Origin: Brucella pseudintermedia
Lineage (GTDB): Bacteria > Pseudomonadota > Alphaproteobacteria > Rhizobiales > Rhizobiaceae
Direction of reading: 5' to 3'
Assembly: GCF_008932435.1 (NCBI RefSeq)
Contig: NZ_WBWE01000001.1
Span: 186,001 to 250,000, forward strand
DNA length: 64,000 nucleotides
The position numbers and the translations under genes were made by a program. This document shows, piece by piece, positions 39,026 to 63,734 of this stretch. The number at the start of each line of letters is the position of its first letter. Within the stretch, counting starts at the first letter, position 1. The notes under the pieces are model-generated. The model was not told the origin of the DNA and ran no database searches. It saw only the letters and a program-made list of their open reading frames with translations.

Positions 39026-39343
39026 TACAGATTTCACTTTCGGTTGATAGGGCAGGCTGTTCGGGCAGCGCGTGCATTTAACAGAGTATATAGGCGCGCC
39101 CGCTTCCGCAGTCCATCGCGCAGGCGCGTCCCTCCCCGCTAATCACATGTCGCGAGCAGACAAGTTCATTGTCACAAAACTGTCATATATTCGTCATGAC
39201 TGCATGGGAATGGATTGCTTTTGGTTGCGAACAAGCCCATATCTCTTGGAAATTTGATTAGCCGGAACATATTTTTTCTTCATTTGTTGCGTTAGCTCAA
39301 TCAACCAGTTTCAACCCTGTCTCCAACCCGAAGGGATTTTGCC
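39026..39343. other. Divergent region between dnaG and Na/Pi cotransporter
   Basis: About 320 bases. It contains a three-repeat Pho-box-like array (listed separately) facing the cotransporter gene, and presumably the dnaG promoter. No short gene was found. Confidence 0.55.
39169..39197 (+). promoter_or_regulatory. Pho-box-like array before the Na/Pi cotransporter
   Basis: Three heptamers at exact 11-base intervals: TTGTCAC (39169-39175), CTGTCAT (39180-39186) and TCGTCAT (39191-39197). This is the clearest Pho box in the window. It lies about 147 bases upstream of the start codon, so the leader would be long. PhoB control of a phosphate transporter fits. Confidence 0.85.
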
Positions 39344-41020
39344 GTGAATGGTTCTGTAGTCCTTTTGCATCTGGCCGGTGCAGTTGCCCTCCTGTTATGG
39401 GCAACACGCATGGTGCGGACCGGGGTGGAGCGCGCCTATGGCGACCGGCTGCGCAGGCGCTTGCGCAACCAGATGCAGAACCCGCTGCTTTCCGTTGCCT
39501 TTGGCCTTGCCCTTGCTGTCGCCCTGCAAAGCTCGACGGCGGTTACGCTTCTCGTCGGCTCCTTTGTCGGCTCCGGCTTTGTCAGCGGCATCGGGGGCCT
39601 CATGGCCGTGCGCGGCGGCGAGCTTGGCTCCGCCCTTGTCGTCAAGATTCTGAGCTACGACCTCACGCTTCTGGTGCCGCTCTGCCTCGTCATCGGCACG
39701 GGCATCTTCATGACCACCGAGCGCCGCGACTGGCGGCAGATCGGGCGTATTCTTGTTGGCATCGGCCTGCTCATCATGTCGCTGGAAATGACCGGGCAAG
39801 CCACGGAGCCGCTGCGGCAAAGCGAATTGCTGCCGGTTATCGTCGATTATCTTTCCGGCGATCCGGTCACGGCCTATCTGCTCGCAGCCCTGATGACATG
39901 GCTTTTTCACTCCAGCGTTGCCGCCGTCATCCTGCTCACCACCTTTGCCTCGCGCGGGCTGATCCATCCCGAGCTTGCCGTGGTGATGGTTCTGGGCGTC
40001 AATCTGGGTTCGTCGATCATCGCCCCGATCCTGACCCGCCATGCCCCGCCCGAAACCCGCGTCGTGCCGCTCGGCAATCTCCTGATGCGCGGTGCGGGGT
40101 CGCTCATCATGCTGGTGCTTTATCAGACCTTCAAACCGTCTATAGCCTTCCTTGGCGCTGACCCGGTTTCGCAGGTGGTCAACGCGCATATCCTGTTCAA
40201 CGTCATCGTGATGATTGCGGGCATCCCTCTTTCCGGCCTCGTTCTGCGCGCGACCGAAGCGCTCGTGCACCTCAATGCCGACAGGAATGCGCCCGCGCAG
40301 CCTCTGGCGGCCGAGGAATACAGCGCGCTCGACGCCGCCGTGCTCGACCGGCCTTCGCAAGCGCTCGCCAATGCGACCCGCGAAGTTGTCGGCGTCTGCG
40401 ACACGATCGAGGTCATGCTGCGCCGCATCATTGAACTTTATGAAAAGCCGGATCAAGCCCGGATAAATGAGCTGGCCGCGCTTGACGACCGGGTGGACAA
40501 GAAGCACGCGGCGATCAAGCTCTATCTCACCAGGCTTGCGACCCATGAGCTGACCGATTTCGAGTCGCTGCGGATGCAGGAACTGCTCGGCGCCTGCGTG
40601 AAGCTCGAACAGGTGGGCGACATCATCGTGCGCAACATGCTGGCGCATGTTCAAAAGAAGATGGACCACAACCTTGAATTTACCGAGGAAGGCTGGAAGG
40701 AACTCAGCCATTTCCACGCCATGGTTCTGGCCAATGCGCATATGGCGTTCAACGTAATTGTTTCGCGCGATGGCCGCACGGCCCGCCAGCTTGTGCAGGA
40801 AAAGGACCAGTTGCGCGAACTGGAAAAGCAGACGAGCATGCGCCATTTCACGCGCCTGCGCGAAGGTGCCACCCGCAGCATCGAAACGAGCTCCATCCAC
40901 CTCGACACGATCCGCGACCTCAAGCAGATCAACTCGCTGCTGGCCTCCATGGCCTATCCAGTGCTCGAAGAACAGGGGCTGCTCAGCGACACGCGCCTCA
41001 AGGCCGCCAAACAGAGCTGA
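39344..41020 (+). CDS. Na/Pi cotransporter family protein with C-terminal PhoU-like domain
   Basis: 558 residues. Two inverted NptA/PF02690 repeats form about nine helices; each contains the QSSTAVTLL or HSSVAAVIL motif of sodium/phosphate cotransporters. Residues about 340-550 form a PhoU-like helical domain (ATREVVGVCDTIEVMLRRIIELYE and ELLGACVKLEQVGDIIVRN in parts). It takes up phosphate, or in some bacteria exports it. Start is GTG 39344 after AAGGGA. The Pho-box-like array upstream supports a phosphate role. Confidence 0.9.
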   Translation: MNGSVVLLHLAGAVALLLWATRMVRTGVERAYGDRLRRRLRNQMQNPLLSVAFGLALAVALQSSTAVTLLVGSFVGSGFVSGIGGLMAVRGGELGSALVVKILSYDLTLLVPLCLVIGTGIFMTTERRDWRQIGRILVGIGLLIMSLEMTGQATEPLRQSELLPVIVDYLSGDPVTAYLLAALMTWLFHSSVAAVILLTTFASRGLIHPELAVVMVLGVNLGSSIIAPILTRHAPPETRVVPLGNLLMRGAGSLIMLVLYQTFKPSIAFLGADPVSQVVNAHILFNVIVMIAGIPLSGLVLRATEALVHLNADRNAPAQPLAAEEYSALDAAVLDRPSQALANATREVVGVCDTIEVMLRRIIELYEKPDQARINELAALDDRVDKKHAAIKLYLTRLATHELTDFESLRMQELLGACVKLEQVGDIIVRNMLAHVQKKMDHNLEFTEEGWKELSHFHAMVLANAHMAFNVIVSRDGRTARQLVQEKDQLRELEKQTSMRHFTRLREGATRSIETSSIHLDTIRDLKQINSLLASMAYPVLEEQGLLSDTRLKAAKQS

Positions 41021-56057: not shown

Positions 56058-56170
56058 AAAAAAAAAGCCAGACAAATGTCTGGCTTTGAGTTTTGAAGGT
56101 GCCTTCAAGGCAAACCTCCAGAGGGGAACACTCAGCCCGCGCAAATGGGAGGAGGAAACGCAGCGCTGAG
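56058..56170 (-). ncRNA. Candidate trans-acting small RNA, AbcR (alpha-r15)-like
   Basis: Predicted RNA of about 113 bases on the minus strand. Stem 1 is CTCAGC...GCTGAG, with loop bases TTTCCTCCTCCC, an anti-Shine-Dalgarno sequence. A second CCCCTCTGGAGG segment follows, then TTGAAGG...CCTTCAA. It ends with GCCAGAC-aaat-GTCTGGC and nine Ts (56058-56066), a rho-independent terminator. The three-stem form with two CCUCC loops is that of AbcR RNAs, which repress ABC-transporter mRNAs in Rhizobiales. Being next to aspB and in the same window as lsrB/vtlR adds support. The exact 5' end is estimated from the promoter. Confidence 0.75.
56064..56087 (-). terminator. Rho-independent terminator of the candidate small RNA
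   Basis: AAAGCCAGAC-aaat-GTCTGGCTTT, 10-bp stem, followed on the minus strand by a run of nine Ts down to 56058. No protein gene precedes it on that strand. Confidence 0.9.
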
Positions 56171-56176
56171 ATGACC

Positions 56177-56407: not shown

Positions 56408-56461
56408 ATGTCACGCAACTGTCACTGCAATGCAGCGGGCCTGTCACATAACGAGCCTAAA
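56408..56461 (+). promoter_or_regulatory. Four-repeat Pho-box-like array before phosphodiesterase-ABC operon
   Basis: Heptamers start exactly every 11 bases: ATGTCAC (56408), CTGTCAC (56419), weaker ATGCAGC (56430) and CTGTCAC (56441). This could hold two PhoB dimers. A CTAAAA-like -10 lies near 56456-56461. The first gene starts at 56556. Inference: the operon is induced when phosphate is scarce. Confidence 0.78.
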
Positions 56462-56555
56462 AGCCCCGGCAAGACGCCGCGCATGATGCGCCCGGCGCAT
56501 GAGCAGCGCGTGAAATGCGCTGCCCCCACAGACAGACCCGAGAAGGAGCGTACCC

Positions 56556-57401
56556 GTGCGGATCGTTCAGATTACAGACACCCACCTCAGCCCCATCAAG
56601 CCGCACTTCAACCGCAACTGGGAGCCGCTCGTTGCCTGGATCGACCAGCAGAAGCCCGATCTCATCATCCACACCGGCGACCTGACGGTGGACGGCGCCG
56701 ATGTGGAGGCCGACCTTCTGTTCTGCCGCGCCTGCCTCAACGAACTTCCCGCACGCGTTCTCACCCTTCCGGGCAATCACGATATCGGTCATCTTCCCGA
56801 AAGCCACCAGCCCGTCAATGCGCAGCGCCTGATGCGCTGGCGCCGTCATATCGGCCCCGACCGCTGGGCGGAAAACTTCGGCGACTGGCGCATTATCGGT
56901 CTCAACAGTCTCATTATCGGTTCCGGCGAAGCCGAAGAAGCCGAACAGTTCCAGTGGCTCGAAGACGAATTGAAGCACAGCGACGGCAAGCCGGTCGCCG
57001 TCTTCGCGCACAAGCCGCTCTTTGTGGACGGTCCGGACGAAGGCGACAGCGGTTACTGGGGCATCCGCCCTGCCCCGCGCCAGCGTCTCTATGATCTTTT
57101 CGCGCAGTATAATGTACAGCTTCACGCCAGCGGCCATCTGCACCGCGCATGGTCGGGCGACGCCTTCGGCACGAACTATGTCTGGGCGCCTGCCGCAGCC
57201 TTCATTGTCGGACCGATGGAACGCGATCTCCCCGGCGAGCGCATTCTGGGCGCAGCCGTTCACGATCTCGATGAAGTTGCCACGAGCAGCATCGTCCGCA
57301 TCGATACGCTGACGCCTTATGTCATCGACGATGTGGTGCATGAAGTCTATCCGCACCACACCGGCGATGGCGAGAAGGTTACCGAGGAGGCAAGCCAGTG
57401 A
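56556..57401 (+). CDS. Metallophosphoesterase (phosphodiesterase, CpdA/GpdQ-like)
   Basis: 281 residues, calcineurin-like fold. Metal ligands are present in order: DTH near residue 8, GDLTVDG (about 43-49), GNHD (about 75), AHKPL (His about 152) and GHLH (about 192). Enzymes of this class cleave cyclic nucleotides or glycerophosphodiesters. There is no signal peptide, so it acts on an imported compound. Start GTG 56556 with AAGGAG upstream; its stop overlaps the GTG of the transporter ATPase by 4 bases. With an upstream Pho-box-like array, glycerophosphodiester or similar substrates are more likely than cAMP, but alternatives such as a PlcP-type lipid phosphodiesterase remain. Confidence 0.85.
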   Translation: MRIVQITDTHLSPIKPHFNRNWEPLVAWIDQQKPDLIIHTGDLTVDGADVEADLLFCRACLNELPARVLTLPGNHDIGHLPESHQPVNAQRLMRWRRHIGPDRWAENFGDWRIIGLNSLIIGSGEAEEAEQFQWLEDELKHSDGKPVAVFAHKPLFVDGPDEGDSGYWGIRPAPRQRLYDLFAQYNVQLHASGHLHRAWSGDAFGTNYVWAPAAAFIVGPMERDLPGERILGAAVHDLDEVATSSIVRIDTLTPYVIDDVVHEVYPHHTGDGEKVTEEASQ

Positions 57402-58576
57402 GCACGCTCGTCCTCCGCGACATCGGCAAATCCTACGGGGGAAACCGCATTCTCGATGGCATTTCCATCGAAGCCGCGGAAGGCGAATTCATCGCCCTTG
57501 TCGGCCCGTCAGGATGCGGCAAGAGCACGCTTTTACGCATTCTCGCCGGTCTCGACCATGCCGATGAAGGAAGCGTCGAGCTTGCAGGCCGCAACATAAC
57601 CGGCGCTCATCCCGCCGACCGCAACATCGCCATGGTATTCCAGTCTTATGCGCTCTATCCCCACCTGACGGCGGCGCAGAACATTGCCGTGCCGCTTGCC
57701 ATGCGCGACCTGACCGCCGTGGAACGCCTGCCGATGATCGGCGCATTCGTTCCGGGGCAGCGCGGCAAACGCGCCGCCATCCAGAAACAGGTCAAGGCAA
57801 CCGCAACCAGCCTCAAGATCGACCACCTGCTCGACCGCAAGCCGGGCCAGATGTCGGGCGGCCAGCGCCAGCGCGTGGCGCTTGCCCGCGCTCTCGTACG
57901 CCAGCCGGGCGCATTCCTGATGGATGAGCCGCTGTCGAACCTCGATGCCAATCTGCGCGTTCACACACGGGCCGAAATCGTCGAACTGCATCGCCGTGCC
58001 GGTGTTCCCACCATCTACGTGACCCACGATCAGGCCGAAGCGCTCAGCATGGCCGACCGCGTTGCGGTCATGATGGGCGGCAAGCTGCTCCAGATCGACA
58101 CGCCGACCGCGATCTATAACGATCCCCGCCATATCGAGGTCGCGCAATTCATCGGCACACCGCGCATCAATATTCTGGAAGCATTGGTCAGCGATAACGG
58201 CATGGTGCATTTTGCCGGCCGCGCCATTTTGCAGGATGTCGCCGCCCATTCCGGCACCAATATCCGCATCGGCATTCGTCCCGAGCATTTTAAGCTCAAG
58301 CCGCACGACAAGACAGGTATTGCAGGCACGGTCGCGCGGATTGAGTTTCTGGGCTCCGAAGTGCTCGTCTACCTCAAGGCTCCGGGCGCCGCGCAGGACC
58401 TCACCGTGAAGCTTGCCCCGGAAGAAGCCCGCGACATCGCTGTTGGCCTGCCTGTCGGGCTGCATTTCGATGCCGCCCACGCCTATCTCTTCGGGGAGGA
58501 TGGCCTGCGCCTGCGCCAGCCCGCCGGGAATATCGTCAAAACCGCATCTCCGGCAAAGGCCGCCGCTCATGTCTGA
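57398..58576 (+). CDS. ABC transporter ATP-binding protein, UgpC/MalK-type
   Basis: 392 residues. Walker A GPSGCGKST (about residue 37), Q-loop MVFQSYALYPH, signature MSGGQRQRVALARAL, Walker B FLMDEPLSNLD and switch His in VTHDQAE are all intact. A segment after the Q-loop (ERLPMIGAFVPGQRGKRAAIQ) is longer than in MalK. The C-terminal half is a TOBE/MalK regulatory domain. It probably powers import of sugar-phosphate or glycerol-phosphate compounds. GTG 57398 is preceded by GAGGAGG; the permease start overlaps its end by 8 bases. Confidence 0.92.
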   Translation: MSTLVLRDIGKSYGGNRILDGISIEAAEGEFIALVGPSGCGKSTLLRILAGLDHADEGSVELAGRNITGAHPADRNIAMVFQSYALYPHLTAAQNIAVPLAMRDLTAVERLPMIGAFVPGQRGKRAAIQKQVKATATSLKIDHLLDRKPGQMSGGQRQRVALARALVRQPGAFLMDEPLSNLDANLRVHTRAEIVELHRRAGVPTIYVTHDQAEALSMADRVAVMMGGKLLQIDTPTAIYNDPRHIEVAQFIGTPRINILEALVSDNGMVHFAGRAILQDVAAHSGTNIRIGIRPEHFKLKPHDKTGIAGTVARIEFLGSEVLVYLKAPGAAQDLTVKLAPEEARDIAVGLPVGLHFDAAHAYLFGEDGLRLRQPAGNIVKTASPAKAAAHV

Positions 58577-59501
58577 TATAACGTTATCCGGCACCGCAGT
58601 CACCGGCGCACGCACGGCGGCGGAGGAAGCCCGCCGCCGCGAAGAACGGCTTGCCTGGAAGCTGGCGGCTCCGGCCATCATCCTCACGGTGCTGCTGATT
58701 CTTCTTCCGACAGCCGCCGTCATTTTCTGGAGCCTCACCAATTTCGAGCTCGGTTATGACGGTTTCGAATTCATCGGGCTGGAAAACTATGCCGAACTGT
58801 TCAGTGACCGCACTTTCCTCGTCTCGCTGAAGAACACCGCCATCTATACCGCCATCGTCGCGCCCGCTTCCGTCTTTCTCGGTCTCGGCGTGGCGCTCCT
58901 TATCGAAGGCGAAGTTCGCGGCAAATCCTTCTTCCGCACGGTTTACTTCCTGCCGGTCGCCTCGCTCCTCGTCGCCATGGCCACCGTCTGGCAATATCTG
59001 CTGCACCCGACCCTTGGCCCCGTCAACGCCATGCTGGGCATGATCGGCATTGCCGGTCCCAACTGGCTCGGCTCCAGCGACACCGTGCTGTTCAGCCTCG
59101 CGCTGATCGGCGTCTGGCAGAGCGTCGGCTTCAACATGGTGCTGTTTCTGGCCGGTCTCACCGCCATTCCGCGCGAACTCTATTCCGCTGCAGAAGTGGA
59201 TGGCGTCAAAAACGGCTGGGAACGCTTCCGGCTGGTCACATGGCCGCTGCTCGGCCCGACCACGCTTTTCGTCACGACGATCAGCATCATCAACGCCGTG
59301 AAGGTCTTCGAAACAGTCAAGACGCTGACCGAAGGCGGTCCGAACAAGGCTTCGGAAGTCCTGCTCTGGACCATCTATCAGGAAGGCTTCGTCTATCTGC
59401 GCGTCGGCTATGCCTCTGCCATGACGGTGATCTTTCTCGCGGTCCTCGTGATCCTGATGTTGCTGCAATTCCGCGTGCTGGACCGCCGCACCCATTATTG
59501 A
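58569..59501 (+). CDS. ABC transporter permease, UgpA/MalF-type
   Basis: 310 residues, six membrane helices after a charged N-terminal tail (EEARRREERLAWK). The binding-protein-dependent permease EAA loop is represented by AAEVDGVKNGWERFRLVTWPLLGPT split here as AAEVDGVKNGW and FRLVTWPLLGP. It forms the membrane channel with the second permease. ATG 58569 lies within the end of the ATPase gene (8-base overlap). Confidence 0.92.
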   Translation: MSDITLSGTAVTGARTAAEEARRREERLAWKLAAPAIILTVLLILLPTAAVIFWSLTNFELGYDGFEFIGLENYAELFSDRTFLVSLKNTAIYTAIVAPASVFLGLGVALLIEGEVRGKSFFRTVYFLPVASLLVAMATVWQYLLHPTLGPVNAMLGMIGIAGPNWLGSSDTVLFSLALIGVWQSVGFNMVLFLAGLTAIPRELYSAAEVDGVKNGWERFRLVTWPLLGPTTLFVTTISIINAVKVFETVKTLTEGGPNKASEVLLWTIYQEGFVYLRVGYASAMTVIFLAVLVILMLLQFRVLDRRTHY

Positions 59502-59511
59502 GGATACCCGG

Positions 59512-60333
59512 ATGACATTGGCTCGTTCTTTCCGTCTTGGACTTCTGTCGCTGGGTGCCCTGCTTTTCCTCGCGCCCTATATCTTCATGCTGTCGACGGC
59601 AGCAAAATCGCAGCAGGACATATTCTCATCCTCCTTGTCGCTGATCCCGCACAACTGGGCGCTTTGGGAAAACATCACCAAGGCAATGAGCCGCGTGCCG
59701 ATGGGGCTTTTGCTGTTCAACGGCGTGGTGGTCTGCGCGCTCGTCCTGGTCATCCAGGTCGTGGTCGCCATTCCCTGCGCCTACGCCATGGCAAAGCTCA
59801 ACTTTCGCGGCCAGCGCATCATGATGATGATGGTCATGCTCGGCCTTTTGGTGCCGATCCATGCCACGGCACTGCCCTTCTATGTCGGCTTCAACCAGCT
59901 CGGCGTGCTCAACAGCTACTTTGCCTTAAGCGCCCCGTTCTTCATCTCGGTCTTCGGCATATTCCTGTTCCTGCAATTCTTCCGCGCCATGCCGGATGAT
60001 CTCATTAGCGCCGCGCGTCTCGATGGCATGTCGGAAGCTGGCATCGTCATGCGGGTAATCGTGCCCAATGCCTGGCCTGCCATCACCGCCTTCTCGATCT
60101 TCTCCGTCGTCGCGCACTGGAACGACCTGTTCTGGCCGCTGATCGTCGTCAACGGCATGGAACGCGCCACGCCGCCGCTCGGCCTCCTTTATTTCCGCGC
60201 TGCGGAAGCGGGCGATGATTACGGGGCGCTGATGGCGGCAACGCTCATCATCACCCTGCCGTTGCTGCTGGCATTTCTCGCCGCCCAGCGCCGCTTCATC
60301 GAAGGCATCACCCTCACCGGCCTCAAGGGCTGA
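59512..60333 (+). CDS. ABC transporter permease, UgpE/MalG-type
   Basis: 273 residues, six helices. The EAA-type loop occurs as ISAARLDGMSEAGIVMRVIVPNAWP in parts (AARLDGMSE; IVPNAWPA). MalG-type partner of the preceding permease; the gap is 10 bases. ATG 59512 follows GAGGATACCCGG. Part of the same operon. Confidence 0.92.
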   Translation: MTLARSFRLGLLSLGALLFLAPYIFMLSTAAKSQQDIFSSSLSLIPHNWALWENITKAMSRVPMGLLLFNGVVVCALVLVIQVVVAIPCAYAMAKLNFRGQRIMMMMVMLGLLVPIHATALPFYVGFNQLGVLNSYFALSAPFFISVFGIFLFLQFFRAMPDDLISAARLDGMSEAGIVMRVIVPNAWPAITAFSIFSVVAHWNDLFWPLIVVNGMERATPPLGLLYFRAAEAGDDYGALMAATLIITLPLLLAFLAAQRRFIEGITLTGLKG

Positions 60334-60367
60334 ATTCGTCCCTCCCATCCTCCACAGGAGTTCAAAC

Positions 60368-61633
60368 ATGAAACGCTTTTCCGGCGCACTCGCCGCTCTG
60401 ACCATGGCAACGGCCTTCGGCTCGCCCGCCCTTGCCGACACGACGCTGAACGTGCACTACCCGATGCCGGGTTTCTTCAAGGATGTCATGGCCGACATCT
60501 CCAAGAAGTTCATGGAAGAAAATCCGGGCATCAAGATCAACTTCGTCAGCCCCTCGGCAACCTATGAGGAAGGTATCCAGACGATCATGCGTCAGGCTGG
60601 AACCTCCGAAATGCCGGATATCACCTTCACCGGCCTGAACCGCCTGCGCGTGCTGGCGGAGCGCAATATCGGCGTCGACATGAAGCCGCTGGTCGAAAAA
60701 GAAACCGACATGGAAGCGCAGGGCTTCACCGATCACCTGCTGAGCCTCGCCCGCGTCGGCGACCGTCAGGTCGGTCTTGCTTTCGCAACCTCCAACCCGA
60801 TCATGTATTACAATGCCGATCTTCTGAAAGCGGCAGGCGGCAATCCCGACACTCCCCCCACCACCTGGGACGAAGTGATTGAACTGGGCGGCAAGATCAA
60901 GGCGCTCGGCAACGGCAATGAGGGCATCGATTTCCGCTGGCAGGGCGACGACTGGATGTTCTCCGCCCTTCTGTTCGGCGCGGGCGGCACCATGCTGACC
61001 GAAGACGAAAAGAAGGTTGCCTTCAACGGACCGGAGGGGCTCGAAGCCTTCAAGCTCATCGACCGCATGGTGAAGGAAGGCGGTATGCCGGTTCTGACCA
61101 AGGCGGCTGGCGAACAGGCTTTCGCGGCTGGCAAGGTCGGCTTCTCGTTCCAGACCACCGGCGCGCTGCGCAACACGATCAAGAATGTCGGCGACAAGTT
61201 CGATCTTCGCACGGCGAAAATCCCGCTCATCAACGCCGAAAAGGGTCGCCTGCCAACCGGCGGCAATGCGGTCGTCATCCTGACCGAAGACCAGTCCAAG
61301 CTTGATGCGGCATGGAAATTCGCCAAGTTCGCCGCCGGACCTTATGGCGCGTCCGTGGTCGTCCCCGGCACCGGCTATGTGCCGAACAACGAACTGGCCG
61401 CAAAGTCCGACGAATATCTCGGCAAATTCTATGAAGAAAATCCACTCTTCAAGGCCGGTCTCAGCCAGATGAACCTGATGATCCCGTGGTATGCCTTCCC
61501 CGGTTCCAACGGCGTGAAGGTGACGCAGACCATCGTCGACAATCTTTCCCGCGTCGTTGAGCAGTCCGCCACGCCGGAAGACGCCCTTGCCGACGCTTCC
61601 AGAGAAGTCCAGCGCCTGCTGCCGCGCAAGTAG
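60368..61633 (+). CDS. ABC transporter extracellular solute-binding protein (family 1)
   Basis: 421 residues. A signal peptide (FSGALAALTMATAFGSPALA|DTTL) precedes a family 1 solute-binding domain: LNVHYPMPGFFKDVMADI, PDITFTGLNRLRVLAER, SNPIMYYNADLLKAAGGNPDTPPTTWDE in parts, and GNAVVILTEDQ later. It captures the ligand in the periplasm. Being last in the operon is less common than being first. UgpB-like members bind glycerol-3-phosphate or glycerophosphocholine, which fits the phosphodiesterase; other sugar-type ligands are possible. AGGAG precedes the ATG. Confidence 0.9.
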   Translation: MKRFSGALAALTMATAFGSPALADTTLNVHYPMPGFFKDVMADISKKFMEENPGIKINFVSPSATYEEGIQTIMRQAGTSEMPDITFTGLNRLRVLAERNIGVDMKPLVEKETDMEAQGFTDHLLSLARVGDRQVGLAFATSNPIMYYNADLLKAAGGNPDTPPTTWDEVIELGGKIKALGNGNEGIDFRWQGDDWMFSALLFGAGGTMLTEDEKKVAFNGPEGLEAFKLIDRMVKEGGMPVLTKAAGEQAFAAGKVGFSFQTTGALRNTIKNVGDKFDLRTAKIPLINAEKGRLPTGGNAVVILTEDQSKLDAAWKFAKFAAGPYGASVVVPGTGYVPNNELAAKSDEYLGKFYEENPLFKAGLSQMNLMIPWYAFPGSNGVKVTQTIVDNLSRVVEQSATPEDALADASREVQRLLPRK

Positions 61634-61653: not shown

Positions 61654-61766
61654 CCCTCACCCTGAGGTGCGGAGCGGAGCGAAGCCTCGAAGGGCGAGGG
61701 TGCAGTATACGCTCCCTCGCCCTTCGAGACGCTGCCTTCAGCAGCTCCTCAGGATGCGGGGAGCGG
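61654..61766. repeat. REP-like inverted repeat (cruciform) element
   Basis: CTCGAAGGGCGAGGG (61686-61700) is complementary to CCCTCGCCCTTCGAG (61714-61728), and an outer pair CCTGAGG/CCTCAGG lies near 61661 and 61747. The unit is a GC-rich intergenic element of the type scattered in this group. It fills most of the gap after the solute-binding protein gene. Confidence 0.8.
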
Positions 61767-61785: not shown

Positions 61786-61820
61786 AAAAAGGCCGCGCTG
61801 GCGATCAGCGCGGCCTTTTG
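61786..61820. terminator. Bidirectional terminator between the ABC operon and lsrB
   Basis: AAAAGGCCGCGCTG-gcgat-CAGCGCGGCCTTTT, a 14-bp stem with A/T-runs on both sides, between converging genes. Confidence 0.93.
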
Positions 61821-61838: not shown

Positions 61839-62744
61839 TCAATAGGTCCAGTTGCGGGCCTTCGAGAACAGGAAGTCGCGGAAGGCGTGGAGTTTCGCGG
61901 AATTCTTCAAGGCTTCCGGATAGCAGAAGAAGGTATCGAAGGACGGTATTTCCTCCAGCTCCGGCAGAAGCTGGACCAGACCGGACTCCTTGTCCGCCAT
62001 ATAGTCGGGAAGAACCGCGATGCCGACGCCCCGCTGCACGGCGCGGCGGATCGACAGAAGATTGTTGACCTGCAATGCCGGGATGCGCGAGCTGCCGTCG
62101 GTGCGTCCGGCGATCTCCAGCCAGTTGAGGCCGGTCAGATAGCTCGGCGCCGGTTCACCGAAGGTCACGACGCGGTGCTGGTCGATCTCGTCTATCGAGT
62201 TGAGCTTGCCATATTTCGAGACATAACCCGCAGATGCATAGACATGCATATGCACCGTGAACAGGCGGCGCTGGATCAGGTCGGGCTGCTGCGGCTGCCG
62301 CAACCGGATGGCGCAATCCGCATGGCGCATTGTCAGGTCCAGTTCCTCATTGTCGAGGATGAGCTGGAGCTGGATATCGGGATAAAGCTCGACGAATTCC
62401 TGAATGCGCTCGATCAGCCAGCCGGAACCGAGACCGACGGTCGTCGTGACGCGCAGGCGGCCTGTCGGCTTTTCCTTGCTTTCGGCAAGCTTCGAGCGAA
62501 CGTTTTCCAGCTTCATCAGCACATCATGCGCGGTGCGATAGAGCGTTTCGCCTTGCTCGGTCAGGATGAGACCGCGCGCATGACGATGAAACAGCGGGAC
62601 GCCGACATCCTGCTCAAGCGCGCTCACCTGACGCGAAATAGCCGATTGCGACAGATGCAATGTCTGGGCCGCGTGGGTGAACGACCCAGCCTCAGCCGCC
62701 GCATGAAAAATGCGCAGTTTATCCCAGTCGAGCGGTGCGACCAC
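61839..62744 (-). CDS. lsrB: LysR-family regulator LsrB/VtlR
   Basis: 301 residues. N-terminal helix-turn-helix (about 1-65; FHAAAEAGSFTHAAQTLHLSQSAISRQVSALE in parts) and a periplasmic-binding-like effector domain. It starts VAPLDWDKLRIFHAA. The gene lies 15 bases after trxB, the arrangement of LsrB of Sinorhizobium and VtlR of Brucella, which control redox genes, surface functions and an AbcR RNA. In line with that an AbcR-like RNA occurs 5.7 kb away in this window. Identification is by context and overall similarity; effector unknown. Confidence 0.85.
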   Translation of the reverse strand: MVAPLDWDKLRIFHAAAEAGSFTHAAQTLHLSQSAISRQVSALEQDVGVPLFHRHARGLILTEQGETLYRTAHDVLMKLENVRSKLAESKEKPTGRLRVTTTVGLGSGWLIERIQEFVELYPDIQLQLILDNEELDLTMRHADCAIRLRQPQQPDLIQRRLFTVHMHVYASAGYVSKYGKLNSIDEIDQHRVVTFGEPAPSYLTGLNWLEIAGRTDGSSRIPALQVNNLLSIRRAVQRGVGIAVLPDYMADKESGLVQLLPELEEIPSFDTFFCYPEALKNSAKLHAFRDFLFSKARNWTY

Positions 62745-62759
62745 GGTATTCCCCTCTCA

Positions 62760-63734
62760 TTACTCCGCAGCTTCGTGCAGCGGTTCCTGTGCGGCAAGCC
62801 AGCGCTCGGCCTCAAGGGCAGCCATGCAGCCCATGCCGGCAGCAGTCACGGCCTGACGATAAATGTCGTCCGTGACGTCGCCCGCGGCGAAAATGCCCGG
62901 AACGTCGGTAGCCGTCGAATCGGGCGCGGTCCATAGATAGCCGTTCGGCTTCTGCTTCAGTTTGCCCTCGAACAAGGAAACCGCAGGCGCATGGCCGATG
63001 GCGACAAAAACGCCATGCGTGTCGAGTTCCTGCGTTTCGCAGGTCACGACATTCTTGAGACGCACGCCGGTGACGGTCGCGCCCATGGGCGGTTTTGCTT
63101 CGGTGCCGAGGATTTCATCGATCACGCTGTTCCAGATAACGGAGACGTTCTGGCGCGAAAGCAGGCGATCCTGCATGATCTTTTCTGCGCGGAAACCGTC
63201 GCGGCGATGCACAACCGTCACGCTCTTGGCAATATGCGAAAGGTAAAGCGCTTCCTCGACAGCGGTATTGCCGCCGCCGACCACGACCACATCCTTGCCG
63301 CGATAGAAGAAGCCGTCACAGGTCGCGCAGGCCGAAACGCCGCCGCCCATGAAGGTCTGCTCGCTGTCGAGGCCAAGCCATTTGGCCTGTGCGCCCGTGG
63401 CGATGATCAGGGCATCGCAGGTATAGACCGTGCCGGAATCGCCTTTCAGGCGGAAAGGACGCACCGTCGTTTCAACCTCGGTGATGATGTCATGGACGAT
63501 TTCAGCGCCGACATTCTGCGCCTGCGTCGCCATCTGGTCCATCATCCACGGTCCCTGCACCGGATCGGCATAGCCCGGATAGTTTTCCACGTCGGTGGTG
63601 ATCATCAGCTGACCGCCCTGCTGCAGCCCGGCGATCACGATGGGCTTCAGCATGGCGCGGGCGGCATAAATCGCCGCAGTATAACCAGCAGGACCCGAGC
63701 CGATGACAATGACTGGCGCATGACGCTGTGACAT
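62760..63734 (-). CDS. trxB: Thioredoxin-disulfide reductase
   Basis: 324 residues. FAD and NADPH domains with GSGPAGYTAAIYAARA near the N-terminus and VVGGGNTAVEEALYLS for NADPH. The redox-active motif is CATC in SACATCDGFF (about residues 135-138). It reduces thioredoxin. Followed by lsrB on the same strand with a 15-base gap, so the two form an operon. Start ATG 63734 (MSQRHAPVIVIGSGPAG). Confidence 0.97.
   Translation of the reverse strand: MSQRHAPVIVIGSGPAGYTAAIYAARAMLKPIVIAGLQQGGQLMITTDVENYPGYADPVQGPWMMDQMATQAQNVGAEIVHDIITEVETTVRPFRLKGDSGTVYTCDALIIATGAQAKWLGLDSEQTFMGGGVSACATCDGFFYRGKDVVVVGGGNTAVEEALYLSHIAKSVTVVHRRDGFRAEKIMQDRLLSRQNVSVIWNSVIDEILGTEAKPPMGATVTGVRLKNVVTCETQELDTHGVFVAIGHAPAVSLFEGKLKQKPNGYLWTAPDSTATDVPGIFAAGDVTDDIYRQAVTAAGMGCMAALEAERWLAAQEPLHEAAE

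What the first reader, a model, noticed from the sequence alone, without database searches (positions are those of the whole stretch)
56408..61633. Phosphate-starvation-type operon: phosphodiesterase plus complete ABC importer under a four-repeat Pho-box-like array
A metallophosphoesterase with all metal ligands but no signal peptide is coupled (4- and 8-base overlaps) to a complete UgpC/A/E/B-like importer. Upstream, CTGTCAC-like heptamers occur every 11 bases four times (56408, 56419, 56430, 56441). Seen: the overlaps, the motifs, the array. Known: Pho boxes are CTGTCAT repeats with 11-base period, and PhoB controls ugp genes. Inferred: the cell imports a phosphodiester (for example glycerophosphocholine or another glycerophosphodiester) and cleaves it in the cytoplasm. 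Putting the hydrolase first and the binding protein last differs from the usual ugp order.
Basis: partly seen in the sequence, partly recalled or inferred. Interest (0 to 1): 0.75.

Follow-up and report, generated by a model that had tools for sequence, protein, structure and literature searches.

The report
Phosphate-starvation phosphodiester importer with hydrolase
A soil bacterium of the Brucella/Ochrobactrum group carries a five-gene unit that is probably switched on when phosphate runs out and that probably imports a small phosphate-containing molecule and cuts it inside the cell; the same unit occurs in many plant-associated relatives, and its exact food molecule is still unknown.

Summary
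Phosphate control is well supported: the array is conserved across congeners, many other genera have a promoter of the same layout, nine paralogous operons lack it, and the genome has PhoB plus matching sites at phn, Na/Pi-transporter and PlcP-like genes. The gene order is standard: 77 of 80 related loci share it. The hydrolase's nearest solved relative by profile is the glycerophosphodiesterase GpdQ, all seven metal ligands aligned. The binding protein's model is closest to glycerophosphocholine-binding UgpB, with sugar binders close behind; yet no subunit reaches an Ugp cut-off and the genome has a separate true UgpB. UgpB's phosphate-holding residues are kept (one Ser is Thr); the acid and arginine that hold glycerol hydroxyls are not at the aligned places. 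So: PhoB-controlled import and cytoplasmic cleavage of a phosphodiester, likely; a glycerophosphodiester, possible, not shown. Four congeners keep the Pho-boxed hydrolase without this importer. A known type of system in a widespread variant for which my searches found no description.

The parts
56408..56447 (+). Pho-box array: heptamers at 56408, 56419, (degenerate) 56430, 56441, 11-base period
   Evidence: conserved in 29 genus sequences
56456..56461 (+). probable -10 element (CCTAAA); CTAAA begins 16 bases after the start of the last heptamer
   Evidence: same spacing with CTAAA in 10 of 21 loci L065-L085 and 31 of 59 other loci; function inferred
56556..57401 (+). class III metallophosphoesterase (phosphodiesterase), GpdQ-like, 281 aa, cytoplasmic
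   Evidence: PF00149 2.5e-18; GpdQ 2dxl 1.4e-16 by profile
57398..58576 (+). UgpC/MalK-type ABC ATPase, 392 aa
   Evidence: UgpC model 365.9 bits, cut-off 432
58569..59501 (+). UgpA-type permease, 310 aa
   Evidence: 150.8 bits, cut-off 335
59512..60333 (+). UgpE-type permease, 273 aa
   Evidence: 114.3 bits, cut-off 297
60368..61633 (+). UgpB-like solute-binding protein, 421 aa, Sec signal by eye
61787..61819 (.). inverted repeat with A/T runs between the operon and the convergent LysR gene, probable terminator
   Evidence: sequence read by eye; not listed by the scan

Best explanation
When phosphate is scarce, phosphorylated PhoB binds the 11-base repeat array at 56408-56447, which stands where a -35 element would be, and starts one transcript of five genes. 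The binding protein captures a small phosphodiester in the periplasm through a UgpB-type phosphate site, the ATPase and two permeases import it, and the GpdQ-like metallophosphoesterase cleaves it in the cytoplasm to a phosphomonoester and an alcohol, so that the phosphate becomes usable. Shown by sequence: genes, overlaps, array, conservation, order, metal ligands, phosphate-site residues. Inferred: PhoB binding, induction, transport, reaction. The ligand is probably a phosphodiester; a glycerophosphodiester is the best single guess but below even odds.
Confidence: 0.68

Rival explanations
1. A glycerophosphodiester-specific system: a second Ugp in which the GpdQ-like enzyme takes the place of UgpQ and the ligand is glycerophosphocholine or a similar compound.
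For: GpdQ as nearest solved relative by profile; model closest to glycerophosphocholine-binding UgpB of M. tuberculosis; phosphate site and both Trp kept; the genome's true UgpB lies on C21 and the one GDPD enzyme found on C32, so Ugp has no linked UgpQ there; congeners without this importer still have true UgpB (4 of 4).
Against: The acid and Arg that hold glycerol hydroxyls in UgpB are not at the aligned places in 21 of 21 clade I proteins (alignment only, K/R384 is close by); UgpB model 80 bits against a cut-off of 411.
Confidence: 0.42
2. The ligand is another phosphodiester, such as a sugar or polyol phosphodiester, or a nucleotide fragment, with a non-glycerol alcohol.
For: Phosphate site kept while the glycerol end is changed; best single-sequence matches among solved chains are a dinucleotide-binding protein (7c1b, 7c0v), which PMC12718374 (passages) lists with the same phosphate residues as UgpB; LacI-family genes, typically sugar-responsive (recalled), beside the operon in 37 of 80 loci.
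Confidence: 0.33
3. An ordinary carbohydrate (CUT1) importer with a broad phosphatase, for carbon; the Pho array is incidental.
For: CUT1 family, annotated as sugar transporter; sugar binders among the nearest structures; LacI neighbour in 37 of 80 loci.
Against: Array conserved and absent from nine paralogous operons; phosphate-site residues kept.
Confidence: 0.12
4. The hydrolase serves an internal purpose (turnover of a cyclic nucleotide or of the cell's own phosphodiesters at low phosphate) and shares only the promoter with the importer.
For: Hydrolase kept under the array without this importer in four congeners, with low dN/dS in three pairs among three of them (0.06-0.11, dS 1.1-2.1); sub-cut-off matches to cyclic-nucleotide phosphodiesterase models.
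Against: Coupling by order in 77 of 80 loci and linkage in paralogous clades; long branches where this importer is missing suggest a change of task.
Confidence: 0.13

Closest known systems
E. coli ugpBAECQ (sn-glycerol-3-phosphate / glycerophosphodiester importer with phosphodiesterase UgpQ)
   Same: CUT1-type importer with a phosphodiesterase gene in one unit; PHO boxes before ugp are stated in PMC4415409 (passages); UgpB phosphate site kept
   Different: hydrolase is a GpdQ-type metallophosphoesterase, not GDPD-type UgpQ; it is first, binding protein last; every subunit below the Ugp cut-off; two glycerol-contact residues not found; coexists with a true UgpB
GpdQ, glycerophosphodiesterase (PDB 2dxl, 2zo9, 3d03; the name is recalled, the chains are labelled Phosphohydrolase)
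   Same: all seven metal ligands aligned
   Different: aligned over about 200 residues only; substrate not tested; hydrolase model not obtained
UgpB of Phaeobacter (9lff) and glycerophosphocholine-binding UgpB of M. tuberculosis (4mfi, 6r1b)
   Different: 19-22% identity; acid and Arg at the glycerol end not at the aligned places
Dinucleotide-binding protein 7c0f and mutants
   Different: 24% identity; ligand end not compared
acc operon for agrocinopine uptake in Agrobacterium (recalled, no call)
   Same: ABC importer plus cytoplasmic phosphodiesterase for a phosphodiester, phosphate-responsive
   Different: other transporter and enzyme families

Membership tests
PhoB (Pho) regulon | Pho box: 7-base direct repeats in 11-base register | tested here: met
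   definition from passages of PMC4415409
PhoB (Pho) regulon | PhoB present in the genome and the same motif at known Pho genes | tested here: met
   the PstS-like gene itself is weak, 24.7 bits against a cut-off of 205, and the true ugpB has only a weak box (8.3)
PhoB (Pho) regulon | PhoB binding and induction at low phosphate | not testable with these tools
   needs an experiment
Ugp importer (UgpB, A, E, C equivalogs) | subunits over the curated NCBIfam cut-offs | tested here: not met
   80.1/411, 150.8/335, 114.3/297, 365.9/432 bits; true UgpB elsewhere in the genome, 502.5 bits
Ugp importer (UgpB, A, E, C equivalogs) | UgpB phosphate contacts (two Tyr, two Ser) | tested here: met
   Y66, S142, T263/T264 (Ser to Thr), Y337; transfer from Phaeobacter to E. 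coli numbering is my inference
Ugp importer (UgpB, A, E, C equivalogs) | UgpB glycerol-hydroxyl contacts (Gly, Glu/Asp, Arg) | tested here: inconclusive
   Gly region kept; Glu aligns with L90 and Arg with T386 by sequence; the model's coordinates could not be inspected
Class III cyclic-nucleotide/glycerophosphodiesterase-type metallophosphoesterase | seven metal ligands D-x-H, D, GNH, H, GHxH | tested here: met
   invariant in 28 rows, aligned with GpdQ
Class III cyclic-nucleotide/glycerophosphodiesterase-type metallophosphoesterase | phosphodiesterase activity | not testable with these tools
   needs an assay

The most novel reading that the evidence does not exclude
The operon is a dedicated phosphate-starvation pathway for a phosphodiester whose alcohol is not glycerol (a sugar or polyol phosphodiester, or a nucleotide fragment): the UgpB phosphate site was kept and the far end of the pocket rebuilt, and a GpdQ-type enzyme was recruited as its hydrolase. 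It would be an undescribed phosphorus source for many root-associated bacteria.
Probability: 0.3. Interest if true: 0.6.

Novelty: new variant of a known kind. Interest (0 to 1): 0.42.

Why it matters
In the six annotated records read, these operons are named only as a sugar transporter plus a metallophosphoesterase. The evidence here turns that into a testable claim: a phosphate-starvation scavenging route for a phosphodiester in Hyphomicrobiales, distinct from Ugp and patchily distributed (hydrolase in 21 of 151 genomes of the family, own included). Knowing the ligand would say which organic phosphorus in soil and on roots these bacteria can use. The lineages that lost this importer but kept the Pho-boxed hydrolase give a natural experiment on what the enzyme does alone.

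Tried and rejected
The AbcR-type sRNA gene between aspC and the array was tested as a regulator of the operon: ungapped complementarity to the first bases of the five genes is reached by 23, 28, 5, 93 and 70 of 100 shuffles (hydrolase, C, A, E, B). One 6-base motif complement lies in the hydrolase gene. No claim is made.

The idea that the operon is the genome's ugp was rejected. The idea that gene order is unusual was rejected. Chance origin of the array was rejected. A single-box search is not specific on its own. Of the 12 genome sites with at most one mismatch, eight were not tied to phosphate genes (among them one before a DUF465-like small gene by my reading, one inside an MFS-type gene, one near a chromate-type transporter, one at a sulfatase/LtaS-like gene) and were not followed further. 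One relative of the hydrolase outside the clades (L154) has no importer of this type beside it. Ten literature searches (titles and starts of abstracts seen) showed no paper on this operon; Yuan et al. 2006 on PhoB promoters in Sinorhizobium and twelve proteobacteria and Fenn et al. 2019 on M. tuberculosis UgpB are not held, so an earlier prediction cannot be excluded. Passages only were seen of PMC8829014, PMC8603345, PMC5082522, PMC8844928, PMC4415409, PMC5461406 and PMC7486931; of PMC12718374 passages, the outline and section 7. The first extraction of true UgpB sequences was faulty for most rows and was redone. In one search the loci on the reverse strand were printed unturned; one search mended that.

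On checking, I added a search for the binding protein in the importer-less genomes, a count of the -10 spacing, and the model and fold comparison that had arrived meanwhile; I corrected the place of the -10 element and the end of the terminator.

Full report
What is there. Pfam finds a calcineurin-like phosphoesterase, an ABC ATPase with TOBE domains, two BPD-type permeases and an SBP_bac_8/1 binding protein. Of the four heptamers, three fit CTGTCAY with at most one mismatch (56408, 56419, 56441); the one at 56430 (ATGCAGC) fits at 3 of 7 places. The exact three-heptamer pattern with its spacing occurs once in the window; with up to three mismatches it occurs twice, and shuffles give 0.12 hits on average.

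Where it is. The window is part of a 4.39 Mb genome. Its close relatives with names are Brucella tritici, B. oryzae, B. cytisi, B. pecoris and others of the Ochrobactrum type. Of 34 congeners searched, 28 have a hydrolase with E below 1e-100. In the family the hydrolase is patchy: 21 of 151 genomes at E of 1e-60 or less, own included. Whether the classical Brucella species have it was not tested by name.

Phosphate control. Across 29 genus sequences (own included; the one sequence from another genus, L034, was left out) the heptamers are 86, 86, 78 and 92% conserved, the three spacers 78, 66 and 58%, the flanks 62-63%. Close congeners are over-represented in that set. In 80 named loci, 45 have a two-heptamer box within 300 bases upstream at a shuffle p of 0.01 or less and 68 at 0.05 or less, 200 shuffles each; all 21 of L065-L085 (Brucella, Ochrobactrum, Falsochrobactrum, Paenochrobactrum and two unnamed isolates) are in the first group, 24 of the other 59 are. 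In many Rhizobium and Ensifer loci the boxes read like CTGTTAC-N4-CTGACAT. CTAAA stands 16 bases after the start of the last heptamer in the window, in 10 of 21 loci L065-L085 and in 31 of the 59 others; allowing any TA-bearing pentamer there, in 20 of 21 and 49 of 59, a lax test without a shuffle control. Controls: five paralogous operons of clade II and four of clade III have no box above a score of 5.0, against 12.7-17.3 for the four clade I loci without importer and about 19 for close relatives of the window; but two clade I operons of other genera, L155 and L158, reach only 9.4 and 7.6. The genome encodes PhoB (333.5 bits, cut-off 296.2). The two-heptamer pattern with up to two mismatches has 91 sites in the genome against 43 for the reversed pattern, so weak sites are often noise. 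Among the 12 sites with at most one mismatch are those at phnF/phnH, at a Na/Pi cotransporter at 39169 in this same window, at a metallophosphoesterase-glycosyltransferase pair like PlcP-Agt (names recalled), and this operon; a two-mismatch site lies before a PstS-like gene about 6 kb from phoB. The other eight were not tied to phosphate genes. The true ugpB of this genome has only a weak box (8.3).

The unit is a unit. In 6 of 6 annotated plasmid records read, the 4- and 8-base overlaps are the same; a seventh record had no annotation. Related hydrolases of clade II (5 loci, same order), clade III (4 loci, divergent) and L162 (hydrolase last) also sit beside such an importer; L154 does not.

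Hydrolase. A profile of 28 rows finds GpdQ-type chains first (2dxl, 1.4e-16), then Rv0805; all seven metal ligands align. The single sequence found nothing. No NCBIfam model reaches its cut-off. There is no signal peptide by eye, so it should be cytoplasmic. Its structure job did not finish.

Hydrolase without importer. In G003, G011, G019 and G031 the hydrolase stays at the same place between aspC and the LysR gene, with its Pho array, but the four importer genes are absent there. Nor is this binding protein found elsewhere in them: best identity 40% in G003 and G031 and 30% in G011 and G019, against 86% in the control G004. On the tree these four lie in one supported fork with five other congeners, three of which were checked and have the full operon, so loss, once or twice, is the simplest reading; their branches are long. 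Among G003, G011 and G019 dN/dS is 0.06-0.11 with dS of 1.1-2.1; for G031 against the window dS could not be computed. All four have true UgpB. One reading is that the enzyme can be fed by Ugp, which would favour glycerophosphodiesters; it is not proof.

Neighbourhood. An AbcR-type sRNA gene (Rfam ar15) lies on the other strand at 56059-56172. The LysR gene next to trxB at 61839-62744 is in the place of vtlR: PMC7486931 (passages) says that trxB-vtlR is well conserved in Alphaproteobacteria and that the abcR genes follow vtlR in Agrobacterium and S. meliloti. In the window the operon therefore sits between the vtlR-like gene and the sRNA gene. aspC, LysR and trxB flank it in 17 of 21 loci L065-L085; in L086-L144 the same search (E of 1e-20 or less, within the DNA held) found neither aspC nor trxB. 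ar15 was found in 4 of 10 loci scanned. In 37 of 80 loci, none of them in L065-L085, a gene related to a LacI-family gene of L192 lies downstream; four such genes were checked with Pfam and carry LacI domains.

Verdict. My estimates: PhoB control about 0.9; phosphate-bearing ligand about 0.8; import and cytoplasmic cleavage of a phosphodiester as a whole 0.68; glycerophosphodiester as the ligand 0.42. It is a new variant of a known kind, the phosphate-starvation importer with its hydrolase, and not categorically new.

Noticed in passing
window 56059-56172, minus strand: AbcR-type sRNA gene (Rfam ar15, 75.5 bits, gathering score 40), one of two found in the genome (the other at G000:C21:179209). 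Pairing with the operon was not above chance.
   Followed up: partly
window 61839-62744 and 62760-63734, minus strand: LysR gene beside trxB, in the position of vtlR/lsrB; the operon lies between it and the sRNA gene.
   Followed up: partly
window 39169-39197: Second Pho-box-like array in the window (TTGTCAC, CTGTCAT, TCGTCAT in 11-base register), upstream of a Na/Pi cotransporter gene that starts at 39344.
   Followed up: partly
window 61654-61760: Palindromic intergenic repeat; partial copies (77-100% identity) in ten other places of the genome.
   Followed up: partly
L145-L149, L150-L153, L162: Further clades of metallophosphoesterase linked to a Ugp-like importer: same order (clade II) and divergent (clade III), both without Pho boxes; hydrolase last in L162.
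   Followed up: partly
G000:C21:54806 and G000:C32:90536: True ugpB and the one GDPD-type phosphodiesterase gene found lie on different contigs; ugpB has no strong Pho box; a gene 30% identical to the LacI of L192 lies near it.
   Followed up: partly
G021:C23:290109-290703: A relative of the hydrolase in two pieces with stop codons, apparently a decayed copy.
   Followed up: no
L091: A record titled Bacillus subtilis SK6B4 carries the operon at Pseudochrobactrum-like identity; probably mislabelled or contaminated.
   Followed up: no
L037 (G000:C43:87648): Exact-consensus Pho-box-like site between a sulfatase/LtaS-like gene and an ABC exporter gene.
   Followed up: no
L189 1973-4108: In Phyllobacterium sp. 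628 a phytase-family esterase and a histidine phosphatase lie shortly upstream of the operon.
   Followed up: no
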